64,000 nucleotides of DNA. It comes from Clostridia bacterium. Lineage in GTDB: Bacteria > Bacillota > Clostridia > Christensenellales > Borkfalkiaceae. How positions within the stretch are numbered: position 1 is the first letter of the stretch; each line of letters opens with the position of its first letter. Positions 28,589-53,508 of this stretch are shown in pieces. Both the position numbers and the translations under genes were made by a program. The stretch covers positions 93,872-157,871 of the forward strand of contig JAFTKC010000010.1 of NCBI GenBank assembly GCA_017456055.1. The letters are read 5' to 3'. The notes under the pieces were generated by a model that saw only the letters and a list, made by a program, of their open reading frames with translations, was not told the origin of the DNA and did no database searches.

Positions 28589-30091
28589 CTAATTTAATCC
28601 TTTAACGATTTTTTTAACAATATTTTCTACTTCTTCTCTATTTTTTGCAAAATCTACAAGCCCTGATTGACATTGTTTTTCCCAATCTCTTATAGCCTTT
28701 AAGTCCACGTCGAATACTTTGCGAATTTCACCTAAATCGGTAATAACGCTCGTATTACAGAAACTTCTAGATAGTATTGCACAAGTCGAACCTATTCTAT
28801 AGTGCTCGGCAATAACCTTTTCAGCACAAAGCATTCCTTTACCTAAAGCGGCAATTCCTCCAAAACCAAACGGAATACCTTTCTTTTTGAACTTATCACA
28901 TAACCCTTCTAGAGTTCCGTCAACTAAAAGTTCAAACATAAATTTCATTCCATACCCTAAACTCAAGTCGTTTAAGCCCACGAAAATCTCGTCTAGTCCG
29001 TCTAATTCAAGTATTTCGTCAATACAAGCCACGGCTTCCGGCGTTTCTACTAAAGGAAGCGTTTTTGCTCTACCACCAACAAGCGAGATAAACTCTTTAA
29101 CTTCACTTGCCGTCTTAAAATACGGTAGCATTATTACGTCTGCCCCACTTTCCACGATAGCGTCGATCTCTTCTTTTGAAGAAGAATACTCTTCGGTAGT
29201 CTCGTGAATAGGATTGCAACGCACCATAACCTCAGCCTTACTTATAACCTTGCGGATATTTTTTATATCTTCTATCGTGTGATGTGACTGAACGGTATCC
29301 ATACCACCTTGTCTAACGGATTTTCCAATATATTCCATATCGATAAAAATTCGCTCTACTCCAGCGTCTTCTACAATCTTAGCAACGTCTACGTTGTTTG
29401 TTATGTACATCAATTTTAGATTTTTCGCATCTACTTGGTCTTTCGTCACGGCAACTTCTTGAGCCAACGATTCTTCCGTTTCAGGAAGAGAAACTACCGT
29501 CTTTCCCTTATTTTCGTTATCGGCGTTAGAGAACACCTTAAACACCGTCTTAAATAAAATCTTAATATCTAGCCACATTGTGAGGTTGTCCACGTACCAA
29601 ACGTTAAGTTTTATTCTCTTGTTCCACTCCACGTCCTTTCTTCCGTTTATTTGCGCCCAACCTGTGATACCCGGTCTAACTTCAAACATTCTATTTTGCT
29701 CTTCGGTGTACTTTTCTAGTGGCCAAGGATGATAAGTTAGTGGAGGTCTAGGTCCAATAAAACTCATATCTCCCTTAAGAACCGAAAGTAATTGTGGAAT
29801 TTCATCAAGACTGGTCGCTCTCAATATTTTACCAATCTTTGTGACTCTCGCATCTCCCTTACCAGAGTAAACGCCACTGCCTTGTTGCTCTGCCCCAACG
29901 CACATTGAGCGAAATTTTAAAATATTAAAGGTCCTTCCATTTTTTCCAAGACGTTGTTGCTTGAAAATAACGGGACCTTTAGAATCTATTTTTATTAAAA
30001 TTGCAATTATAAGCATAGGTATTGATGCAATTATCAAGCCAAAAATAGAAAAGAAAATATCAAATACCCTTTTTAAAAAATGTCTGTACAT
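28589..30091 (-). CDS. Initiating sugar transferase fused to an HpcH/HpaI-family aldolase
   Basis: A 500-residue two-domain protein, first in the operon. Residues about 1-195 are a small monotopic phosphoglycosyl transferase: a membrane helix (IFFSIFGLIIASIPMLIIA), the FKQQRLGKNG loop, the catalytic Asp-Glu in TSLDEIPQLL and GDMSFIGPRP. This part should start repeat-unit synthesis on undecaprenyl phosphate. After a linker, residues about 226-470 match the HpcH/HpaI aldolase family: RIFIDMEYIG, VMVRCNP, LPLVETPEAVACIDEIL (metal Glu) and FVGLNDLSLGYG (metal Asp). Aldolases of this type split or make 2-keto acids with pyruvate. One continuous frame supports a real fusion. Why the two activities are joined is unknown. 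Confidence 0.9.
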   Translation of the reverse strand: MYRHFLKRVFDIFFSIFGLIIASIPMLIIAILIKIDSKGPVIFKQQRLGKNGRTFNILKFRSMCVGAEQQGSGVYSGKGDARVTKIGKILRATSLDEIPQLLSVLKGDMSFIGPRPPLTYHPWPLEKYTEEQNRMFEVRPGITGWAQINGRKDVEWNKRIKLNVWYVDNLTMWLDIKILFKTVFKVFSNADNENKGKTVVSLPETEESLAQEVAVTKDQVDAKNLKLMYITNNVDVAKIVEDAGVERIFIDMEYIGKSVRQGGMDTVQSHHTIEDIKNIRKVISKAEVMVRCNPIHETTEEYSSSKEEIDAIVESGADVIMLPYFKTASEVKEFISLVGGRAKTLPLVETPEAVACIDEILELDGLDEIFVGLNDLSLGYGMKFMFELLVDGTLEGLCDKFKKKGIPFGFGGIAALGKGMLCAEKVIAEHYRIGSTCAILSRSFCNTSVITDLGEIRKVFDVDLKAIRDWEKQCQSGLVDFAKNREEVENIVKKIVKGLN

Positions 30092-33935: not shown

Positions 33936-34817
33936 TTATTCTTTTATTGGCTTTTTACCGTAAATTTCTATCATTTGCTCTTTTGACAAAATTTTATCTT
34001 TTTCAAAGAAAGGTGCTTTCTTTAGGAAAATTATTAGTATATACGCAACGCCACCCAAAATAAAGAATATCGATTGCCATTGAGAAGGTGTTAAGCCGAG
34101 AGCAAGATTTTCCACCCTTGCAGCGTCCCCCCTAAATATTTCGATTATCATACGCCATACGCCGTAGGAAATAAGGTAGGCAGGCATAGTAAACGTCGCT
34201 CCCTTCTTTTCGTATAAATACCACAATACACCGAAGGCGATAAACAAAAATAGCGCTTCATAAAGTTGAGTTGGAATATAGTAGCCCCATTGATGATAAC
34301 CATTAAGCGTGCCGTACATATAAATTCCACCCACAACGTAGTCACTACCTAAATAAGTTCCGTGACAACAACCTGCCATCAAGCAACCTATTCTTCCAAA
34401 AGCGTGAGCAATTAGTATGCACATAGGAGCAACTAATACTATTGTGTAGAAGTGCTTAACGTGTACGCCCTTTATATTTCCCTTAAAGAATATTTTACCA
34501 CCAACAAAATATGATAAAATAAACATTGCAGCGCCACCAATCAAACCACCCATAACGGTTATGCCAGCACTATAAAAGTCAAACTCACCCGTCTCCATCC
34601 ACACGTAAACGGCCTGATATAATTTAGCGAACAAAAATCCTACTGCTATTGCTATGATAGTGACGAAAAATGCAAACTCTTGAACGTTTTCCGGCATTCC
34701 CCTTCTTTTAGTAAAGTAGAAGAAGAACATTATGCACGCCACTAAGCCGATTGCAATACATATTCCGTATAAATATACTCCGTTTCCAAAAAGTTTAAAT
34801 AAAGCGTTTGGAACCAT
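33936..34817 (-). CDS. lgt: Prolipoprotein diacylglyceryl transferase
   Basis: A 293-residue membrane protein with about seven helices that attaches diacylglycerol to the lipobox Cys of prelipoproteins. HAFGRIGCLMAGCCHG is the Firmicutes form of the Lgt signature with the catalytic Arg region, and PTQLYEALFLF is also typical. Shine-Dalgarno AGGAGG. It follows the AEC transporter by 15 bases, so is co-transcribed from the promoter at 35860-35888. One likely client is the lipoprotein at 58383-61472. Confidence 0.95.
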   Translation of the reverse strand: MVPNALFKLFGNGVYLYGICIAIGLVACIMFFFYFTKRRGMPENVQEFAFFVTIIAIAVGFLFAKLYQAVYVWMETGEFDFYSAGITVMGGLIGGAAMFILSYFVGGKIFFKGNIKGVHVKHFYTIVLVAPMCILIAHAFGRIGCLMAGCCHGTYLGSDYVVGGIYMYGTLNGYHQWGYYIPTQLYEALFLFIAFGVLWYLYEKKGATFTMPAYLISYGVWRMIIEIFRGDAARVENLALGLTPSQWQSIFFILGGVAYILIIFLKKAPFFEKDKILSKEQMIEIYGKKPIKE

Positions 34818-37552: not shown

Positions 37553-38854
37553 TTATTTTACTATAATTTCTTCTCTTTCGTCTGGACTTATCGGCTCTAT
37601 TTTAACGTTATCAAGTTTAATATCTTCTACGTTTTCCACGTATAGTCCATAACAAGGCAACGAGAATTTAGTGCTTTCAGGATATTCGCTTTTAGATGGA
37701 AATTTAACTTCCATATCCTTTTTGCCACCACCTAGAACCTTAAATTTAACATTAGTTAAACTAATGTTTTTGAGTGGGTTTTCTTTATCGCAACTCATAA
37801 CCACACTAGTATGCGACGGGTTGGTAAAATAATGAAGGTCAAACGGCTCGCCACTAGTTGGACACCAACTATTTATAATTGGAAACTTATCGCCGTGAAC
37901 GTCAGCGTAGACGTTTGAAATATTAACGTCGCTTATGCTTCCAATTTTAGTTCCTTCAGGACCTCTTAATCTTTCTCCTAGATAGATAAATAGTGGGTTT
38001 GCAACGTTTTGCATAGTTATATTAGATATATTTACTGCTAGAATATTAGCACCGTCTACACTCTCGATTGCAATTCCTGAGTGCCAAGTATTTACTACTA
38101 CGCAGTTCGTCACGTTAATATACTTAAAATCCCCGTACGATTCAGTGCCGAACTTGATTGCGTTTGCCAAACTACTCAATACACAGTTTGCTATAGTTAT
38201 TCTTTCGCAATTATGTTTTTGTCTATCAAAATATGAAGTCTTAAGCACTAGCGCATCGTCACCCGTCTTGATAATACAATCCGAGATAACCACGTCTTGA
38301 CAACCGTCTGGACTAATTCCATCAATATGCGATTTTATAAAAACTCTACTTATAATAACGTCTTTACAAGCACCCATCAAAACGGCAATATCAGTAGCAT
38401 TTAAAATCTTTACGTCGTAAAGTCTTAATCCCTCTACCTTTCTTAGCGCAAAAACTTTTACGCCACGATAATATCCGTCTTTAGCACGCTTATTATCATC
38501 GTCCCATAAAGAGTGCATATCAATAGTTGCAAGTCCCTTTATGCTTATGTTTTTAACGTTATTCGCGTAAAACATAGCACAAGTATAAGAACTATGCGAA
38601 AGGTCTTGATATCTAACTTCATCTAAAGGCTCGTCAGCGTTAAAATCGCTAATTTTTTCTGCTGAGCGAATAACTACGCCGTCTTCAAAAACTATATTGG
38701 TGTTATCCTTAAGTATTACGCTTGAAAGCGTGTAAGTTCCAAATGGAACGAATATGGTTTCGCCACCCCTTTGAGAACCTAAATCAATCGCTTGTTGGAA
38801 GGCAAGCGTATCGTACTTGTTTTCTTTATTTAAAAAATCTTTTAAGTTAATCAT
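37553..38854 (-). CDS. Glycoside hydrolase family 28 (polygalacturonase-like)
   Basis: A 433-residue right-handed beta-helix protein without signal peptide, so probably cytoplasmic. The GH28 catalytic region is KSHIDGISPDGCQDVVISDC then IIKTGDDALVLKTS, containing the aspartates; later GTESYGDFKYI and SGIAIESVDG fit the conserved His/Gly-Arg regions only loosely. It may cleave galacturonide- or rhamnogalacturonan-type oligosaccharides. Last gene of the operon headed by the TIR-methyltransferase; its start overlaps the serine hydrolase stop by 8 bases. Confidence 0.85.
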   Translation of the reverse strand: MINLKDFLNKENKYDTLAFQQAIDLGSQRGGETIFVPFGTYTLSSVILKDNTNIVFEDGVVIRSAEKISDFNADEPLDEVRYQDLSHSSYTCAMFYANNVKNISIKGLATIDMHSLWDDDNKRAKDGYYRGVKVFALRKVEGLRLYDVKILNATDIAVLMGACKDVIISRVFIKSHIDGISPDGCQDVVISDCIIKTGDDALVLKTSYFDRQKHNCERITIANCVLSSLANAIKFGTESYGDFKYINVTNCVVVNTWHSGIAIESVDGANILAVNISNITMQNVANPLFIYLGERLRGPEGTKIGSISDVNISNVYADVHGDKFPIINSWCPTSGEPFDLHYFTNPSHTSVVMSCDKENPLKNISLTNVKFKVLGGGKKDMEVKFPSKSEYPESTKFSLPCYGLYVENVEDIKLDNVKIEPISPDEREEIIVK

Positions 38855-40346
38855 TTTCCATTTTCCCTACTGCAGTGCCAAAATATTCGTACAAGAAAAA
38901 CTCAGTATTATTGTCCATTTCTAAAACGAGAACGTCGCCCTTAAACCTAAGTAGCATATTCACGTGCCCGATGTACATATCAACTACGTTTATTTTTAGA
39001 AACAAGCAATCTTCCATAACCCAACTGCCAAGCCCCATACTATCGTAGCCCCTATCCATCATCTCACCAAGTTTTATGCCACTATAAATTTCGGGAAGTT
39101 CAAACTTAACGTACTCTTCTCTTCCGAATAAAAATTCCTTTACGCCTCGCTCGTTTTCGTAGATAAATTTTCCGCCGTCCCTATCAAAGCAAACTTTTAC
39201 CCAATTTATACCCATTGGGTTTTCTTTTAACTTAAATTTTTTGCCGTTTATATTCTCTTCAGTTTTAGAATACTTTTCGCCGTATCCTTTACCCAAGGTC
39301 ATTTCCCCAAGTGCCTTTTGCATTTGAGAATATTCACTAAGATTTTCTACGATTGGCTCTTTTTCAATATTCTTATAAATTCTAAGCAATTTATCGTATA
39401 TTGAAACCTTGGCAACTTGATTGTCTACACCACCTTGATATGCTATAATCACGTCTTTTTCTGGGAAACAATGCACGCTATTGCTATTCATTCCGTGAAG
39501 TCCAAACCCATAAGGCTCTACCCATATTTGATAGCCGTAGCCACAACTATTATTCATTCTAAGCCCACTTATGCAGTTTTCCGTATGCTTAGAAACGGCT
39601 TTTTCCATAAAATCACGTGGAATTAATTGCTTGCCGTTAATTTCACCTTTATTTATAAGTAGCATACCTATTTTAGCAAAGTCACGAAGAGTGGTTAAAA
39701 CACCACTTCCTCCCCAGCTGATTCCGTCTGGCGATTGAACGCAATCTATCTCTTTTGAAATACCCATTTCGTCAAATTCCGGTCTTAAATATTCTAGAAA
39801 GTTTAAGCCCGTCACCTTATAAACGATAACATTTAATAGATAACTTGCCGCCGTATTATATCTAAATTTCATTCCGTTAGGAAGATTTCCTTTAGTTCCT
39901 ACGAAAAATGATTTTGCCCATCCACTCGGCTTATAAGTATAATTTATATTACCAGCAAATTTTACGTTTACGTCTGCGTAAGAAACGGTCGGCAACGAAA
40001 CTTGCATAGTTAAAGCATCTTCAAGTGTGGTTTCGGCAATTAGTGAATCACAATCTTTTTTATACTCAGGGAAGAAATCAATTAGTTTATCGGTAAGTTT
40101 TGCCTTTCCTTCACCTATTAATTTTCCTATTGCTATTGCACTATAAGTCTTGCTAGAAGAATATACTCTATGGTGATAATCCTTATCAAAAGGCTTACTA
40201 TACCCTTCGGCAAGCACCTTGTTCCCTTTAAGTATTATAAAGCCGTGCAAGTCAAATCTTTGCTCTTTAATCTCTTGCAAAAACTCGGTTATATATTTTG
40301 ATGAAAGCCCTTGGCTTTCAGGCGTCACGTTTATTAGGTCAATCAT
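38847..40346 (-). CDS. Serine hydrolase of the class C beta-lactamase fold
   Basis: A 499-residue protein. VYSSSKTYSAIAIGKLIGEG holds the SxxK nucleophile (S-S-S-K); YNTAASYLLNVIVYK provides the Tyr of the YxN-like motif; GLHGMNSNSVHCFPEKDV fits the third motif with His in place of Lys. About 150 C-terminal residues form an extra domain. No signal peptide, so it is likely cytoplasmic and acts as an esterase or peptidase rather than a resistance enzyme. Being translationally coupled to a GH28, it may remove ester groups from plant-type oligosaccharides; this is inference. Confidence 0.82.
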   Translation of the reverse strand: MIDLINVTPESQGLSSKYITEFLQEIKEQRFDLHGFIILKGNKVLAEGYSKPFDKDYHHRVYSSSKTYSAIAIGKLIGEGKAKLTDKLIDFFPEYKKDCDSLIAETTLEDALTMQVSLPTVSYADVNVKFAGNINYTYKPSGWAKSFFVGTKGNLPNGMKFRYNTAASYLLNVIVYKVTGLNFLEYLRPEFDEMGISKEIDCVQSPDGISWGGSGVLTTLRDFAKIGMLLINKGEINGKQLIPRDFMEKAVSKHTENCISGLRMNNSCGYGYQIWVEPYGFGLHGMNSNSVHCFPEKDVIIAYQGGVDNQVAKVSIYDKLLRIYKNIEKEPIVENLSEYSQMQKALGEMTLGKGYGEKYSKTEENINGKKFKLKENPMGINWVKVCFDRDGGKFIYENERGVKEFLFGREEYVKFELPEIYSGIKLGEMMDRGYDSMGLGSWVMEDCLFLKINVVDMYIGHVNMLLRFKGDVLVLEMDNNTEFFLYEYFGTAVGKMEND

Positions 40347-40369: not shown

Positions 40370-40675
40370 TTAAAATCTAGCGCCAAGATAACTGCTCCAG
40401 AATATATCTAGAAATCTTGCGGCGTATTCTCCCATTACGCATTCAACGGTTAGTCTAATATTTTTTAATTCTCTAACTCCCCATTTTTCATAAACCTTAT
40501 CGCCAACTTCTTGGCAAATTTCTTTTATAACGTTTCCGTTCCACGATTCGTATTCTTCGTCTGCAAAGTCTGGATAATGGTGAAGAGTTTCTAGCACGAT
40601 ATCTTCTATATCACACCAATCGTCTTCTTCTAACGCTACGTCTATTGCTTTTAACAATTCTTCTCTATTTCTCAT
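40370..40675 (-). CDS. Small acidic protein of unknown function
   Basis: A 101-residue acidic protein, predicted all-helical, with no signal peptide or membrane segment. Trp and aromatic residues are frequent (DDWCDIEDIVLETLHHYPDF; FLDIFWSSYLGARF). I do not recognise the family. It lies 2 bases after the stop of the broken yhcH gene and 23 bases before the serine hydrolase, so it belongs to the same transcript; a Shine-Dalgarno (AAGGAGATAG) overlaps the upstream stop. Confidence 0.7.
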   Translation of the reverse strand: MRNREELLKAIDVALEEDDWCDIEDIVLETLHHYPDFADEEYESWNGNVIKEICQEVGDKVYEKWGVRELKNIRLTVECVMGEYAARFLDIFWSSYLGARF

Positions 40676-40677
40676 AT

Positions 40678-41158
40678 CTATCTCCTTACCTTTACTACTA
40701 TTTTCTTTACGGGAATTTGCTCTCCGTTTATCGCTAAGCCTGGTCTATGTATATCGTGTGGAAATAATATTGCATACTCCCCTTACTCTAATACACACGT
40801 GGTTGGATTTTCAGCGTTAAAATAAAATTCAACGTCTTTCTCTGCGTTATATAACGTCTTTCTCTGCGTTATATTCGGTTTTGGTTTTAATAGAGTTTAT
40901 ATCACAAACTTCTATTATCTCTTTGCCTGACACTACGTATTGAACGTCTATATAGTTTCTATGCCCTTCGTTTTTAGCATCTGCAGATAGTTTTGAATTA
41001 TATTCTTGAACGGATGCGTAAACGTCCTTTCCGTCAATTTCGTACTTTCCAACGGGCAAGTTTTCTTTTACTGCCTTTTTTATAAAATCAAACGCCTTAA
41101 TAAAATTTTTGTGATTAGCAAAATACAACTCGCAATTATTTATATTGTCTTTAATCAT
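40678..41158 (-). pseudogene. YhcH/YjgK/YiaL-family gene, disrupted
   Basis: The first 99 residues (ending KTEYNAEKDV) match the YhcH/YiaL family of small cupin-like sugar-metabolism proteins, including GHRNYIDVQYVVSGKE. A perfect 22-base tandem duplication at 40831-40874 then shifts the frame and creates a stop. If one copy is removed the frame goes on with EFYFNAENPTTCVLE, meets a second lesion (TAA at 40783-40785 where relatives have a Glu-like codon) and resumes with GEYAILFPHDIHRPG to a TAG at 40678. The intact product would be about 152 residues, the family norm. Two independent lesions argue for true decay. Confidence 0.9.
40831..40874. repeat. Perfect 22-base tandem duplication
   Basis: Two adjacent identical 22-base units (40831-40852 and 40853-40874; unit begins aacgtctttctctgcg). 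Because 22 is not a multiple of three it breaks the yhcH-family frame. Confidence 0.95.
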
Positions 41159-41177: not shown

Positions 41178-42572
41178 TTATTTTATATCCGTTTTTCTAG
41201 CAACTGAAACAAGCATGGTTTCACCAAACCAAAAGGAAGGGCTACCAAATACTTCTTGAAGTTTATCAAGCGCCGAATTCATCCATTCCATATCGTTTTT
41301 TACTATGGTGTTATTCGGGTTTTTGGCAAGTTCTTTTTGATAATACATAGTTCTAAGAGAAAATCGCATTTTATATAATGCCATACGATCGTCATAACCC
41401 ATACTAGATGTATTTATAAAAGTTCCAAACACTTTAATATTTTTATAACCCGTAGCCTCTAGATAGTGAAACATTTTTCTACCGATAAATCTATCGTCAA
41501 TGCCCGGTGCATTTAAGTATCTTTCGCAAATCTTTCTAACTAATCCGTCGTCCCCATAAGCGATATACGTTCCCTCGTCCGATTGACGAAAGATTACGTA
41601 TCCGTCTTCACTTAGGCAAGTTCTTAGATTTCTCAAAGCTTTTAGCGGGTCCTTTATATGTTGCAAAACGTACGCTCCAAACACTACGTCGAATTTCTTT
41701 ATTTTGTATTTACCCATTATCATTTCGATTTCTTCATCAAAATTGCTTGATAATAAATCTACTTTTTCATAATGGGCGTTTTCATCGTCGTTAAGTTCTC
41801 TCGCTTTCTCTAAAACGGCGTCTGATATGTCTATACCTATTATAACCTTGTTGGAAAAATCCGCAAAGCGATCTCTTCCCACGACTCCATAGCCACAACC
41901 TGCGTCTAATATATAGACGGTTTCTGTGTCCTTTAATTGCTCTTTTACGTAATTTACACCTTTCATATCGCTAGGACGCATTGCTTCGCCTTGTATCTTA
42001 AGGCGTTTATACTCCCCACTAAACGTGGAGTCGTAATAAGACGCTTTCTTTTCGCCAAATTCATTGACTAACCCTAAATTGTTTTTGGCAGGTATTCCCT
42101 TTTGAACTTGTGAATTTTTACCTTCTACAAACTGTCCTTTTCCGTTAACTGCACGTACAACGAACTCGCCTATAACTTCAATTGAAGATTGATTAAGTTT
42201 GAAGGACTGATAGTGTCTTAGCCCAGTGGGAACTTCTGAAATTTCCATATCACCAAGATAGGTGACGATTGAGCCTTCTACAATGTTAGAAAGTATATTT
42301 TGTTGATATGTGTGCCACTCGTATTTGCACCATTTAGAAGTTATGTATTCTTTCTTGCTACCAACTACCACCATTACTTTTACTTCATCTAAAACGTCGT
42401 CAATAACTTCTTTATATTGCGCCTCGCCGTAATCTAATAAGGTGACGTTGCTATAAAAGGTCTTTATTCCCCTAGACTCAAGGTAGTTATACAATTCTTC
42501 GCTTACTTGCCTATCTTGAGTAAATTCATTATTTTCGGTGTTTTTAAATGATATAAAAACTTGATAACCCAT
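41178..42572 (-). CDS. TIR domain fused to a SAM-dependent methyltransferase
   Basis: A 464-residue protein with no signal peptide or membrane segment. Residues 1-130 are a TIR domain: YQVFISFKN at the start and TSKWCKYEWHTYQQ with Glu85 in the WCxxEW motif, the catalytic position of NAD-cleaving TIRs. After a linker, residues about 206-460 form a class I methyltransferase: VYILDAGCGYGVVG (SAM loop), IIGIDIS (acidic ribose-binding Asp), VVFGAYVLQHIKDPLKALRN (motif IV/V). It starts the five-gene run ending with GH28 and has its own promoter. Targets of either activity are unknown; neither a known Thoeris-type partner nor a phage defence gene is adjacent. Confidence 0.88.
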   Translation of the reverse strand: MGYQVFISFKNTENNEFTQDRQVSEELYNYLESRGIKTFYSNVTLLDYGEAQYKEVIDDVLDEVKVMVVVGSKKEYITSKWCKYEWHTYQQNILSNIVEGSIVTYLGDMEISEVPTGLRHYQSFKLNQSSIEVIGEFVVRAVNGKGQFVEGKNSQVQKGIPAKNNLGLVNEFGEKKASYYDSTFSGEYKRLKIQGEAMRPSDMKGVNYVKEQLKDTETVYILDAGCGYGVVGRDRFADFSNKVIIGIDISDAVLEKARELNDDENAHYEKVDLLSSNFDEEIEMIMGKYKIKKFDVVFGAYVLQHIKDPLKALRNLRTCLSEDGYVIFRQSDEGTYIAYGDDGLVRKICERYLNAPGIDDRFIGRKMFHYLEATGYKNIKVFGTFINTSSMGYDDRMALYKMRFSLRTMYYQKELAKNPNNTIVKNDMEWMNSALDKLQEVFGSPSFWFGETMLVSVARKTDIK

Positions 42573-42809: not shown

Positions 42810-43523
42810 ATGTGTTTCAAAGACTATAATGAAAATGAATATAATTGTTTTAAGGGATGGAATAATCCTAAAAATTGCCTTAAAAAAGATTCTCAACCTT
42901 GTCCTTGTTATGCAATAGTTTCAAACGTACAGGGCGTTCGTGGTCCTATTGGTCCGCAAGGTCCTCAAGGGATTCAAGGTGAAGTAGGTCCTACTGGTCC
43001 GCAAGGTCCTCAAGGAATTCAAGGTGAAGTAGGTCCCGCTGGTCCGCAAGGTCCTCAAGGAATTCAAGGTGAAGTAGGTCCCGCTGGTCCCGCGGGAAGC
43101 GTGTTAGGTTATGCAGACTTTTTTGCCCTAATGCCACCAGATAATTCTTCTACCATTGGAGCGGGAGCAAACGTTAGTTTTCCACAAGACGGACCAAATA
43201 GCAACACTAGTATAAGTAGACTAAGTGATTCGTCTTTTAATTTAGAGAGTATTGGCGTTTATCAAATTACGTTTCAGGTAAGCGTGACGGAAGCAGGACA
43301 ATTAATTATAACGTTAAATGGAGAAGATATCCCATCTTCTGTTGTTGGGAGAGCGACTGGAACTTCTCAAATCGTAGGAATGGCAATTATAGAAACGACT
43401 GAAATAAATTCCGTTCTTACTATACAAAATCCTACTGGCTCTACTACAGCTCTAACTATTACTCCTCTTGCTGGTGGAACTCGCTCCGTGTCTGCTCACC
43501 TCATCATTACTCAACTCGCATAA
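42810..43523 (+). CDS. Collagen-like surface protein with BclA-type C-terminal domain
   Basis: A 237-residue protein. A 50-residue N-terminus rich in Asn and Cys (including PCPCYAI) is followed by about 20 Gly-X-Y triplets (about residues 45-97, mostly [15 protein letters not shown] units), then a 135-residue beta-rich domain ([12 protein letters not shown] ... HLIITQLA) resembling the trimeric C1q/TNF-like heads of BclA exosporium proteins. It lacks a standard signal peptide, as does BclA. A spore-surface or cell-surface fibre is inferred. Shine-Dalgarno GAGGT; own terminator at 43528-43554. Confidence 0.88.
42951..43085 (+). repeat. Three 45-base tandem repeats coding the collagen triplets
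   Basis: Units at 42951-42995, 42996-43040 and 43041-43085, each coding five Gly-X-Y triplets. Units two and three are identical; unit one differs at three third-position or adjacent bases. In-frame expansion or contraction by slippage is expected. Confidence 0.92.
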
Positions 43524-51631: not shown

Positions 51632-53407
51632 CTATCTCTCATATCCCCAAACTACTGGGCGATTATCCGGATTCCAAACCCAAGCCCAACCACCTGGCTT
51701 GCTTTCCGCTTCGCAGTAGATTGTTAATGAACTGCAAGCAGAGAAAGCATAATCACCCATATATATCACGCTATTAGGAATTAATATACTTGTTAATGAA
51801 GTACAACCAGAGAACGCAAAATTACCTATACTTGTCACACTATTAGGAATATATACACCAGTTAATGAAGTGCAATCTTCGAACGCAGAATTACTTATAC
51901 TTGTCACGTTGTTTGGAATTATAAAAGAAGTATTTGTTTTACCGATTGCATATTGTATTAAAGTCTTTCCATCTTTACTATATAAGTTGCCGTTTATATC
52001 CTTATAACTAGCATTTCTTACATCAACTTCTATTTTTGCAAGAGAAGTACAACCAGAGAACGCATAACTACCTATACTTGTCACGCTATTTGGAATTACT
52101 ATGCTTGTTAATGAGCCGCAATTTTGGAACATTTTATCTTCTATTCTCTTCACACCATTAGGAATAGTATATTCAGTCAATTTATCTAACTTTACAAGTT
52201 CTCCATAGTCTCCCTTTAATATATAGGTTGACCTTTTTACCATTAAAGAAGAGTCTTTAAAATCTCCAAGTTGCGAGAACAATTCCTTAGCCTGCTCATA
52301 ATTCTTGCCAATATAATATTCTTGCGCTAACTCGTACTTTTCACTTTTCTTCGCTGTGTTGATAGAACAGATTATAATTGTGGCTATAATTACTAAACAT
52401 AAAACAACAACAGAAACTATCAAAATCTTTTTCTTGTTTTTCTTCCTGCGGAGTTCTTCTTCTCTCTGTTTCTTAAGTATTTCCTGTTTTTGCTTTCTCT
52501 TTCTCTCTTCCCTATCCTTCCAATCTTTTAAAAGTTTTTCTATTCTTATAATTTGCTCTTTAGAATCTTTAAAATCAATTATACTTTTTAAATCGACCAT
52601 ACTTTTTTTGTAATTTATTTCATTGGGAGATTTTTTTATACGAGATAAAGCCAAATTGTAAATCCCTTTCTTTCTCTCGTTTTCAAGAAATTCTTTGTTT
52701 TTATCCACGTACGATAAAAGGACGTTTTTATACTCTTCACTAGCAAAGCGAAGCGCCTTATTTAGATTAGCATTGCTCTCTATTGGTGTTTTAAAAGTAA
52801 ATAATTGCTCTAGTTTACTTAGCCTAAAATCTACTAAAGTCTTTATTAAGTACGCCTCTGCATATTCCATATCTAAATCTAACACTTTTTCCGCGTACTT
52901 ATCTGCCTCTGCAAATTTTCCTTCTTCCAAGAATAGATACGCTCTTTTAATTAGATTTTTTTCTTGTTTTTCAAATTGTATTTTTTCTTGGTCTAAAAAG
53001 GTTTCTTCGCTAGCCTCTTTACCCATTTGATTAAGCATTTCTTTTAAGCCTAATTCAAAATTATCAACGGCGTTCACCCATTGAGCCCTTTGTAAAAAAT
53101 AAGTGCTTGTTTTGGACAAGGTAAATTCTTGTATTTTTAAGGGAATTATCTTCTTTCTGCCACTAAATGCAAGCGACAATTCGTTTATACAGTGTGGTGA
53201 ATCATCTGAATTTTGACTCATTACAAACACAAAGCAATCACAACCGTTTACTGCGTTTGTAATTTCATTTGCAAAATCTTCGCCACCATGAATATCCTTG
53301 CTTGCTATCCAAGCGTTAATTCCGTTTTCTGTCAAAAAATCGTGAACTCTACTTGCTTTTTCTTGATCTTTTGTGGAATAACTTATAAATACGTATGGTT
53401 TTTCCAT
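51632..53407 (-). CDS. TIR - TPR - membrane helix - leucine-rich repeat receptor-like protein
   Basis: A 591-residue protein; the ATG at 53407 has a strong AAGGAG. Residues 1-130 are a TIR domain (KPYVFISYSTKDQEKASRV; SPHCINELSLAF with Glu76 at the likely catalytic position). Residues about 145-190 look like tetratricopeptide helices, 285-327 a charged coiled coil ending KKNKKK, 328-349 a membrane helix. A second TPR-like piece (YYIGKNYEQAKELFSQLGDF) follows, then BspA-type LRR_5 repeats (about 410-570: SIVIPNSVTSIGSYAFSGC and relatives). The positive-inside rule puts TIR in the cytoplasm and LRRs outside. Monocistronic, flanked by terminators. Function unknown; sensing with TIR signalling is inferred. 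Confidence 0.9.
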   Translation of the reverse strand: MEKPYVFISYSTKDQEKASRVHDFLTENGINAWIASKDIHGGEDFANEITNAVNGCDCFVFVMSQNSDDSPHCINELSLAFSGRKKIIPLKIQEFTLSKTSTYFLQRAQWVNAVDNFELGLKEMLNQMGKEASEETFLDQEKIQFEKQEKNLIKRAYLFLEEGKFAEADKYAEKVLDLDMEYAEAYLIKTLVDFRLSKLEQLFTFKTPIESNANLNKALRFASEEYKNVLLSYVDKNKEFLENERKKGIYNLALSRIKKSPNEINYKKSMVDLKSIIDFKDSKEQIIRIEKLLKDWKDREERKRKQKQEILKKQREEELRRKKNKKKILIVSVVVLCLVIIATIIICSINTAKKSEKYELAQEYYIGKNYEQAKELFSQLGDFKDSSLMVKRSTYILKGDYGELVKLDKLTEYTIPNGVKRIEDKMFQNCGSLTSIVIPNSVTSIGSYAFSGCTSLAKIEVDVRNASYKDINGNLYSKDGKTLIQYAIGKTNTSFIIPNNVTSISNSAFEDCTSLTGVYIPNSVTSIGNFAFSGCTSLTSILIPNSVIYMGDYAFSACSSLTIYCEAESKPGGWAWVWNPDNRPVVWGYER

Positions 53408-53508
53408 CTTTCTCCTTTTGTATGTGTCAAACAATAATAACGATAATCTTATTTTTTTTACTATATCACTTTTAAAGTTTTTATGCAAGTGTTTTTAATT
53501 ATATTAAA

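What the first reader, a model, noticed from the sequence alone, without database searches (positions are those of the whole stretch)
41178..42572. TIR domain fused to a methyltransferase, heading a five-gene run
Seen: one open frame has a TIR domain with WCxxEW (Glu85) and a class I methyltransferase with LDAGCGYG. Known: bacterial TIRs often cleave NAD to make signals or deplete NAD in antiphage defence. Inference: the methyltransferase could modify a small molecule or the TIR product, or be the effector. The gene is transcribed with yhcH-family, unknown, serine hydrolase and GH28 genes, which is an unusual partnership for defence and may indicate a glycan- or nucleoside-processing system.
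Basis: partly seen in the sequence, partly recalled or inferred. Interest (0 to 1): 0.8.

Follow-up and report, generated by a model that had tools for sequence, protein, structure and literature searches.

The report
TIR–methyltransferase fusion in gut Clostridia
One protein joins an immune-type NAD-cutting domain to a methyl-transferring enzyme; related two-part proteins are scattered through one order of bacteria, many of them from animal guts, and what the two parts do together is unknown.

Summary
In detail: the 464-aa minus-strand frame carries a TIR domain (Glu85 in WxxxE) and a class I methyltransferase. It is not unique: 41 full-length genes lie in 30 of 396 genomes of the order. I found no further full-length copy in class and phylum samples, phages, viral contigs (13, 31) or plasmids. 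Both active sites are kept: Glu85 46/46, SAM-site Asp223 46/46. Glu85 aligns with the RUN1 Glu, and the matching Glu of a sister fusion with the SARM1 Glu. The five-gene run is not a conserved unit: none of the other four genes lies near the fusion in 39 other loci, and yhcH is broken here. The gene barely follows host family, and its TIR seems to have been exchanged on a conserved methyltransferase, once for a SARM1-like one. Best reading: a mobile, self-contained NAD-cleaving defence or stress effector whose methyltransferase gates it or acts beside it. Function and substrate are unproven; an Asp needed for NAD cleavage in two other bacterial TIRs is Ser here. No paper listed by eight searches names the pair.

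The parts
41178..42572 (-). TIR–methyltransferase fusion gene, 464 aa
   Evidence: full-length relatives
42153..42572 (-). TIR domain (residues 1-140), FISFKN type, W81-C-K-Y-E85; Ser41 where SARM1 has Asp
42051..42152 (-). linker (residues 141-174), mostly predicted disordered (pLDDT under 50 at 145-174)
   Evidence: linker length varies across 46 relatives
41178..42050 (-). class I SAM-dependent methyltransferase domain (residues 175-464), motif I LDAGCGYG at 222
40847..41158 (-). open part (103 aa) of a broken yhcH-family gene (DUF386); it ends inside a 22-bp tandem duplication at 40831-40874; neighbour, not part of the system
40370..40675 (-). 101-aa orphan; neighbour, not conserved with the fusion
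38847..40346 (-). beta-lactamase-fold serine hydrolase; neighbour, not conserved with the fusion
37553..38854 (-). GH28 (rhamnogalacturonidase-like); neighbour, not conserved with the fusion

Best explanation
A stand-alone, horizontally moved, two-enzyme protein. SHOWN by sequence and predicted fold: an N-terminal TIR of the enzymatic kind, a flexible linker, and a C-terminal class I SAM methyltransferase; key residues of both active sites are kept across a diverse family; the TIR appears to have been exchanged on a conserved methyltransferase core; no partner gene is shared across the loci examined. INFERRED: on a trigger the TIR domains assemble and cleave NAD+ (or an NAD-like nucleotide), giving nicotinamide and ADP-ribose products and stopping growth, as a single-gene antiphage or stress effector would. 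The methyltransferase is an active enzyme that binds SAM and one conserved substrate, and most likely supplies the recognition or gating side (arrest released when substrate or SAM is altered by infection or stress), or acts in parallel on that substrate.
Against: I saw no copy beside a recognised defence system in the neighbourhoods I read by eye (no systematic defence scan of neighbours, and one search was cut), and none in phages, viral contigs or plasmids. Many neighbours look like housekeeping genes. The beta-B Asp needed for NADase activity in AbTir and TcpC (PMC11374754, passages seen) is Ser41 here and Asp in only 7 of 46 members, so the chemistry may differ. W81 is kept in 25 of 46; the same paper found it needed in AbTir but not in TcpC. 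In the profile alignment the E85 column falls on an Asp of SARM1, not on its Glu, so the SARM1 equivalence rests on the sister L017. Over all 1035 pairs TIR and methyltransferase identities correlate (r 0.86), so exchange is occasional on a background of joint descent. The host carries other TIR proteins, one receptor-like, so signalling without antiphage function is open. Nothing here shows NAD turnover or methylation.
Confidence: 0.4

Rival explanations
1. Two steps of one signalling route: the TIR cleaves NAD+ and the fused methyltransferase methylates the product (an ADP-ribose isomer or nicotinamide), making or switching off a messenger.
For: Both active sites are kept in one polypeptide; fold neighbours of the methyltransferase include many small-molecule methyltransferases.
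Against: No receptor or effector gene is shared by the neighbourhoods seen. The methyltransferase also occurs without a TIR (G076, G218, G751; L011 and L028), so its substrate need not come from the TIR. I know of no methylated ADP-ribose signal (recall). TIRs of different types sit on the same methyltransferase.
Confidence: 0.15
2. The methyltransferase is the effector or a metabolic enzyme, and the TIR is an assembly domain that recruits it to other TIR proteins of the cell, such as the TIR–TPR–LRR receptor-like protein.
For: The host genome has 5 TIR genes, this one included, one of them a TIR–TPR–LRR_5 protein 9 kb away in this window; sister TIRs elsewhere are fused to what look like membrane-anchored outside domains (read by eye).
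Against: Glu85 is invariant, 46 of 46, which a pure scaffold would not need.
Confidence: 0.2
3. Part of a five-gene glycan- or nucleoside-processing operon with YhcH, the serine hydrolase and GH28.
For: Same strand and short gaps in this genome; a terminator-like site after the last gene and none in the gaps.
Against: 0 of 39 other loci have any of the four genes nearby; yhcH is broken; the 4 same-genus genomes searched lack the hydrolase and the orphan.
Confidence: 0.04
4. A self-contained toxin–antidote pair in one chain: the methyltransferase domain keeps the TIR off by methylating it or by steric hold, and loss of SAM releases it.
For: Flexible linker of varying length; conserved SAM site.
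Against: Residues outside motif I are as conserved as the SAM site, which a pure hold would not need; pTM 0.60 gives no firm interface.
Confidence: 0.1

Closest known systems
SARM1 TIR (animal NAD+ hydrolase)
   Same: TIR fold and Glu; one TIR–methyltransferase (L017) carries a TIR that matches SARM1 at E 4e-32 over 133 residues
   Different: SARM1 joins its TIR to ARM and SAM (sterile alpha motif) domains (recall), not to a methyltransferase; the window TIR is a more distant type, 16-19% identical to the SARM1-like TIRs
AbTir and RUN1 TIR enzymes
   Different: the beta-B Asp needed in AbTir is Ser here by position; the second domain is a methyltransferase
SPARTA (TIR-APAZ with short Argonaute)
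   Same: N-terminal TIR; among the tied best structural matches
   Different: residues 175-464 are a methyltransferase, not APAZ
SpbK (abstract start seen in a listing)
   Same: a TIR antiphage protein with NADase activity
   Different: the second domain here is an active-looking methyltransferase; I know of no antiphage test of it
Methyltransferase of Methanosarcina mazei, PDB 3mgg (titled only as a methyltransferase)
   Different: about 20% identity, over the methyltransferase part only
Thoeris ThcB4 (NF058526)
   Same: weak TIR match
   Different: 19.7 bits against a cut-off of 220; no Thoeris protein named among the six window neighbours scanned with Pfam, apart from a sub-cut-off ThsB_TIR match of the TIR–LRR protein

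Membership tests
TIR domain (Pfam TIR_2) | profile match over the curated cut-off | tested here: met
   38.7 bits against 28
TIR domain (Pfam TIR_2) | TIR fold | tested here: met
enzymatic TIR (NADase) | conserved Glu of the C-helix WxxxE motif | tested here: met
   E85 on the RUN1 Glu; sister Glu on the SARM1 Glu, though the profile aligns SARM1 otherwise; 46/46
enzymatic TIR (NADase) | beta-B Asp (AbTir D167, TcpC D203) | tested here: not met
   Ser41 here, on the Asp of SARM1 in the alignment; Asp in 7 of 46. Needed in two bacterial TIRs (PMC11374754 passages); whether it defines the family is unsure
enzymatic TIR (NADase) | NAD+ cleavage | not testable with these tools
   needs an assay
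class I SAM methyltransferase | motif I and profile match over cut-off | tested here: met
   59.3 bits against 30; D223 46/46, G225 45/46
class I SAM methyltransferase | Rossmann methyltransferase fold | tested here: met
class I SAM methyltransferase | methyl transfer | not testable with these tools
   substrate unknown
Thoeris type III ThcB4 (NF058526) | score over the curated cut-off | tested here: not met
   19.7 bits against 220; 34.1 for the SARM1-like member
SPARTA TIR-APAZ | APAZ domain after the TIR | tested here: not met
   residues 175-464 are a methyltransferase
SPARTA TIR-APAZ | Argonaute partner gene | tested here: inconclusive
   none among the six window neighbours scanned; other loci read by eye only
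MADS mad2 (PADLOC) | match over the whole mad2 profile | tested here: not met
   only profile positions 271-394 of 492 matched, by the methyltransferase part (35.9 bits); no cut-off is given for PADLOC there
   0 of 39 loci

The most novel reading that the evidence does not exclude
A new kind of bifunctional immune enzyme in which an exchangeable TIR and a fixed methyltransferase act on one pathway: NAD-derived nucleotides or NAD-capped RNA ends are cleaved by the TIR and methylated by its partner, giving a methylated signal or a modified RNA end not seen before, with the TIR part swapped more than once, in one lineage for a SARM1-like one, as in an arms race.
Probability: 0.12. Interest if true: 0.88.

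Novelty: new variant of a known kind. Interest (0 to 1): 0.6.

Why it matters
TIR enzymes usually come with a sensor, another effector or a partner gene (recall). Here TIRs of several types are paired with one family of apparently active methyltransferases, and no other gene was seen to go with them throughout. If the pair cleaves NAD and methylates something, it opens either a new trigger (SAM or substrate sensing) or a new product of TIR signalling, and both are testable with one purified protein. The SARM1-like TIR in some members adds bacterial relatives of the animal axon-death enzyme in a new setting; that SARM1's TIR branches within bacteria is already in print (PMC13142454, passages seen).

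Tried and rejected
Conserved operon: rejected. Phage, plasmid or viral origin of the fusion: no match in phages, 4 and 29 pattern stretches in viral contigs but none confirmed, 29 plasmid records with partial matches and none covering 80% of the query. A fusion in Ottowia (L140, 33% over residues 3-328): rejected, since the TIR and methyltransferase pieces there do not lie in one frame. Mad2: only the methyltransferase part matches. Substrate from fold neighbours: below 3mgg the matches are tied among small-molecule, tRNA and lipid methyltransferases, so no substrate is named. Empty-site test in the genus: in 4 same-genus genomes nrdR and the gene at 33936-34817 lie on different contigs, two contigs end near the site, and the stretch after the dCMP deaminase differs between the other two, so it is a variable region but no clean empty site was seen. 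Compositional foreignness: GC 36.3% for the gene against 35.3% for the window, no signal. Promoter scan: 24 sites against 18.9 by chance, uninformative. My first neighbour caller missed four family members in three genomes (L036, L037, L039, L055), probably through long antisense frames; redid it, and the output was cut in the middle, so some neighbours were not seen there. A five-gene TIR/KGGVGR-ATPase/GNAT cassette beside the fusion was seen in 2 genomes of one genus and not pursued.

Limits on counts: one search scored at most four candidates per genome, so 41 genes is a lower bound. In one search the patterns came from the TIR half, so the 19 loci lean to the FISFKN type. The 39 loci have flanks of up to 6-10 kb where the contig allowed, and include at least four records fetched twice (L036/L104, L037/L122, L038/L114, L039/L120), so about 35 distinct places. 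The 46-row set came from loci in hand (47 with both domains, L109 dropped as a near-copy of L108); members without a fetched locus are not in it. Residue counts depend on one MAFFT alignment. The clades tested were named after seeing the trees, and long branches are present.

Full report
OBSERVATION. The frame at 41178-42572 (minus strand, 464 aa) is real and reads as described. Pfam gives TIR_2 over residues 5-127 and several overlapping class I methyltransferase models, best over 222-325. WCKYEW sits at 81-86, LDAGCGYG starts at 222. The gene heads a same-strand run with short gaps: yhcH, a 101-aa unknown, a beta-lactamase-fold hydrolase and GH28, with a terminator-like site after GH28 and none in the gaps. 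The yhcH gene is broken: its open frame ends at 103 aa inside a 22-bp tandem duplication (40831-40874), and a later in-frame stop follows.

DISTRIBUTION. With a profile of 15 diverse members (A1), 36 of 396 genomes of the order have a match at E 1e-25; 41 of the 47 matched places span both domains, in 30 genomes; of the other six places five hold only methyltransferase sequence (two of them short pieces) and one only a TIR. The 3 same-genus genomes listed there have no match. In 391 genomes drawn from the class, 42 have some match at E 1e-15 but only the own genome a full-length one; in 398 drawn from the phylum, 1 of 398, the own, at E 1e-22. In the named genome collection, 101 stretches matched a pattern, 43 encode a relative and 19 of these are full-length (L104-L122), all titled MAG; 15 of the 19 titles name deer, buffalo, goat, yak, sheep or 'Lapin' (which I read as rabbit) samples. 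No match in phages, none confirmed in viral contigs, and 29 plasmid records match in part, none over 80% of the query. Four of the 19 carry the NCBI label Bacilli; I could not test whether these lie outside the order.

ACTIVE SITES. Across 46 members Glu85 is 46/46, Asp223 46/46, Gly225 45/46, Glu187 46/46, Asp332 46/46, Arg361 46/46, Gly364 46/46, His305 45/46; position 248 is Asp in 36 and Glu in 10. A profile of the window's TIR type aligns W81 and E85 with W and E of the plant TIR enzyme RUN1. One sister fusion (L017) has a TIR that matches SARM1 at E 4e-32 with Glu on Glu; that these Glu are catalytic is recalled. [quoted passage not shown] Against this: the beta-B Asp that the same paper found necessary in AbTir and TcpC is Ser41 here and Asp in only 7 of 46 members; W81 is present in 25 of 46, a residue needed in AbTir but not in TcpC; and the broader profile, whose best match is SARM1 (E 6.4e-14), lays the E85 column on an Asp of SARM1 instead of its Glu. 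A catalytic TIR is likely, but its products may differ.

NEIGHBOURHOOD. In 39 loci around other copies (about 35 distinct places) none of the four partner genes was found by tblastn at E 1e-3; of the genes upstream, the dCMP deaminase was found in 1 of 39. The immediate neighbours differ and many look like housekeeping genes, read by eye (the output was cut). Small shared contexts exist among few loci: a 923-958-aa unknown protein directly downstream in L107 and L108, a 178-aa gene directly upstream in L112 and L115, and a five-gene cassette (TIR, unknown, KGGVGR-type ATPase, unknown, GNAT) beside the fusion in two genomes of one genus. In the window's family the hydrolase was found in 5 of 61 genomes and the 101-aa gene in 1 of 61.

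EVOLUTION. On the methyltransferase tree, host family changes 18 times among 35 rows with known family codes, against a shuffled mean of 21.6 (minimum 17, 200 shuffles), so the gene scarcely follows host descent. Its nearest relative in the order sample (70% identity) is in another family. The TIR appears exchangeable: two groups share 44% methyltransferase but only 20% TIR identity, while inside each group the TIR is the more conserved part (72/55 and 69/50); L012 pairs a TIR nearer the SARM1-like group (34%) with a methyltransferase nearer the window's group (37%). TIR data reject the methyltransferase clade of 12 (p-AU 0.0098), and methyltransferase data reject L012 with the SARM1-like set (p-AU 1.7e-90); these groups were named after the trees were seen and long branches are present. 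On the other side, identities of the two domains correlate over all pairs (r 0.86, 1035 pairs), so most descent is joint and exchange occasional.

MECHANISM. What is shown: two conserved enzyme domains, a flexible linker, no shared partner gene in the loci seen, weak tracking of host descent, signs of TIR exchange. What is inferred: conditional NAD cleavage by the TIR, with the methyltransferase as the constant recognition, gating or second-enzyme part. The methyltransferase also exists without a TIR (G076, G218, G751), so it may have a substrate of its own. Antiphage defence is a common role of bacterial TIRs by recall, but I saw no copy with a recognised defence system, and the host carries other TIR proteins, one of receptor-like build.

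LITERATURE. Eight full-text searches asked for TIR with methyltransferase and two for other TIR matters. No title or abstract start that they listed names a TIR–methyltransferase protein; three hyphenated forms gave 0 papers. I saw passages of PMC13142454, PMC7159879, PMC8195603, PMC6299218, PMC10853773, PMC10937652 and PMC11374754, and none of these passages describes it; the other listed papers were not opened. Subscription papers are largely missing from the library.

VERDICT. It is a new variant of a known kind (TIR enzyme with a new fused partner), real and recurrent, function open. Interest 0.6.

Noticed in passing
window 51632-53488 (-): TIR, TPR, a predicted membrane span (by eye) and BspA-type LRR_5 in one 618-aa protein: like a Toll receptor turned round.
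   Followed up: partly
L130, L134, L139, L125: Sister TIRs of the FISFKN type are fused, by eye, to a membrane span plus outside domains (LRR_5-like, solute-binding-like, propeller-like) in other bacteria.
   Followed up: no
L017, L019, L022: TIR–methyltransferases with a SARM1-like type of TIR (grouped by identity); L017 matches SARM1 at E 4e-32.
   Followed up: partly
L044:10871-18038 and L049:11069-18344: Five-gene cassette beside the fusion: TIR, unknown, KGGVGR-type ATPase, unknown, GNAT. In L044 the two unknowns and the ATPase have no Pfam match; the ATPase has a sub-cut-off NCBIfam match (36.3 bits against 90; layout).
   Followed up: partly
L107:7354-11078 and L108: Large unknown protein (923-958 aa) 4-13 bp downstream of the fusion; the L107 copy and the 318-aa gene after it have no Pfam, NCBIfam or PADLOC match.
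   Followed up: partly
window 42810-43523 (+): Collagen-repeat protein with a BclA C-terminal domain, divergent from the fusion.
   Followed up: no
window 28589-30091 (-): By eye, a sugar-transferase-like N-terminal part joined to an aldolase-like C-terminal part in one frame; not tested.
   Followed up: no
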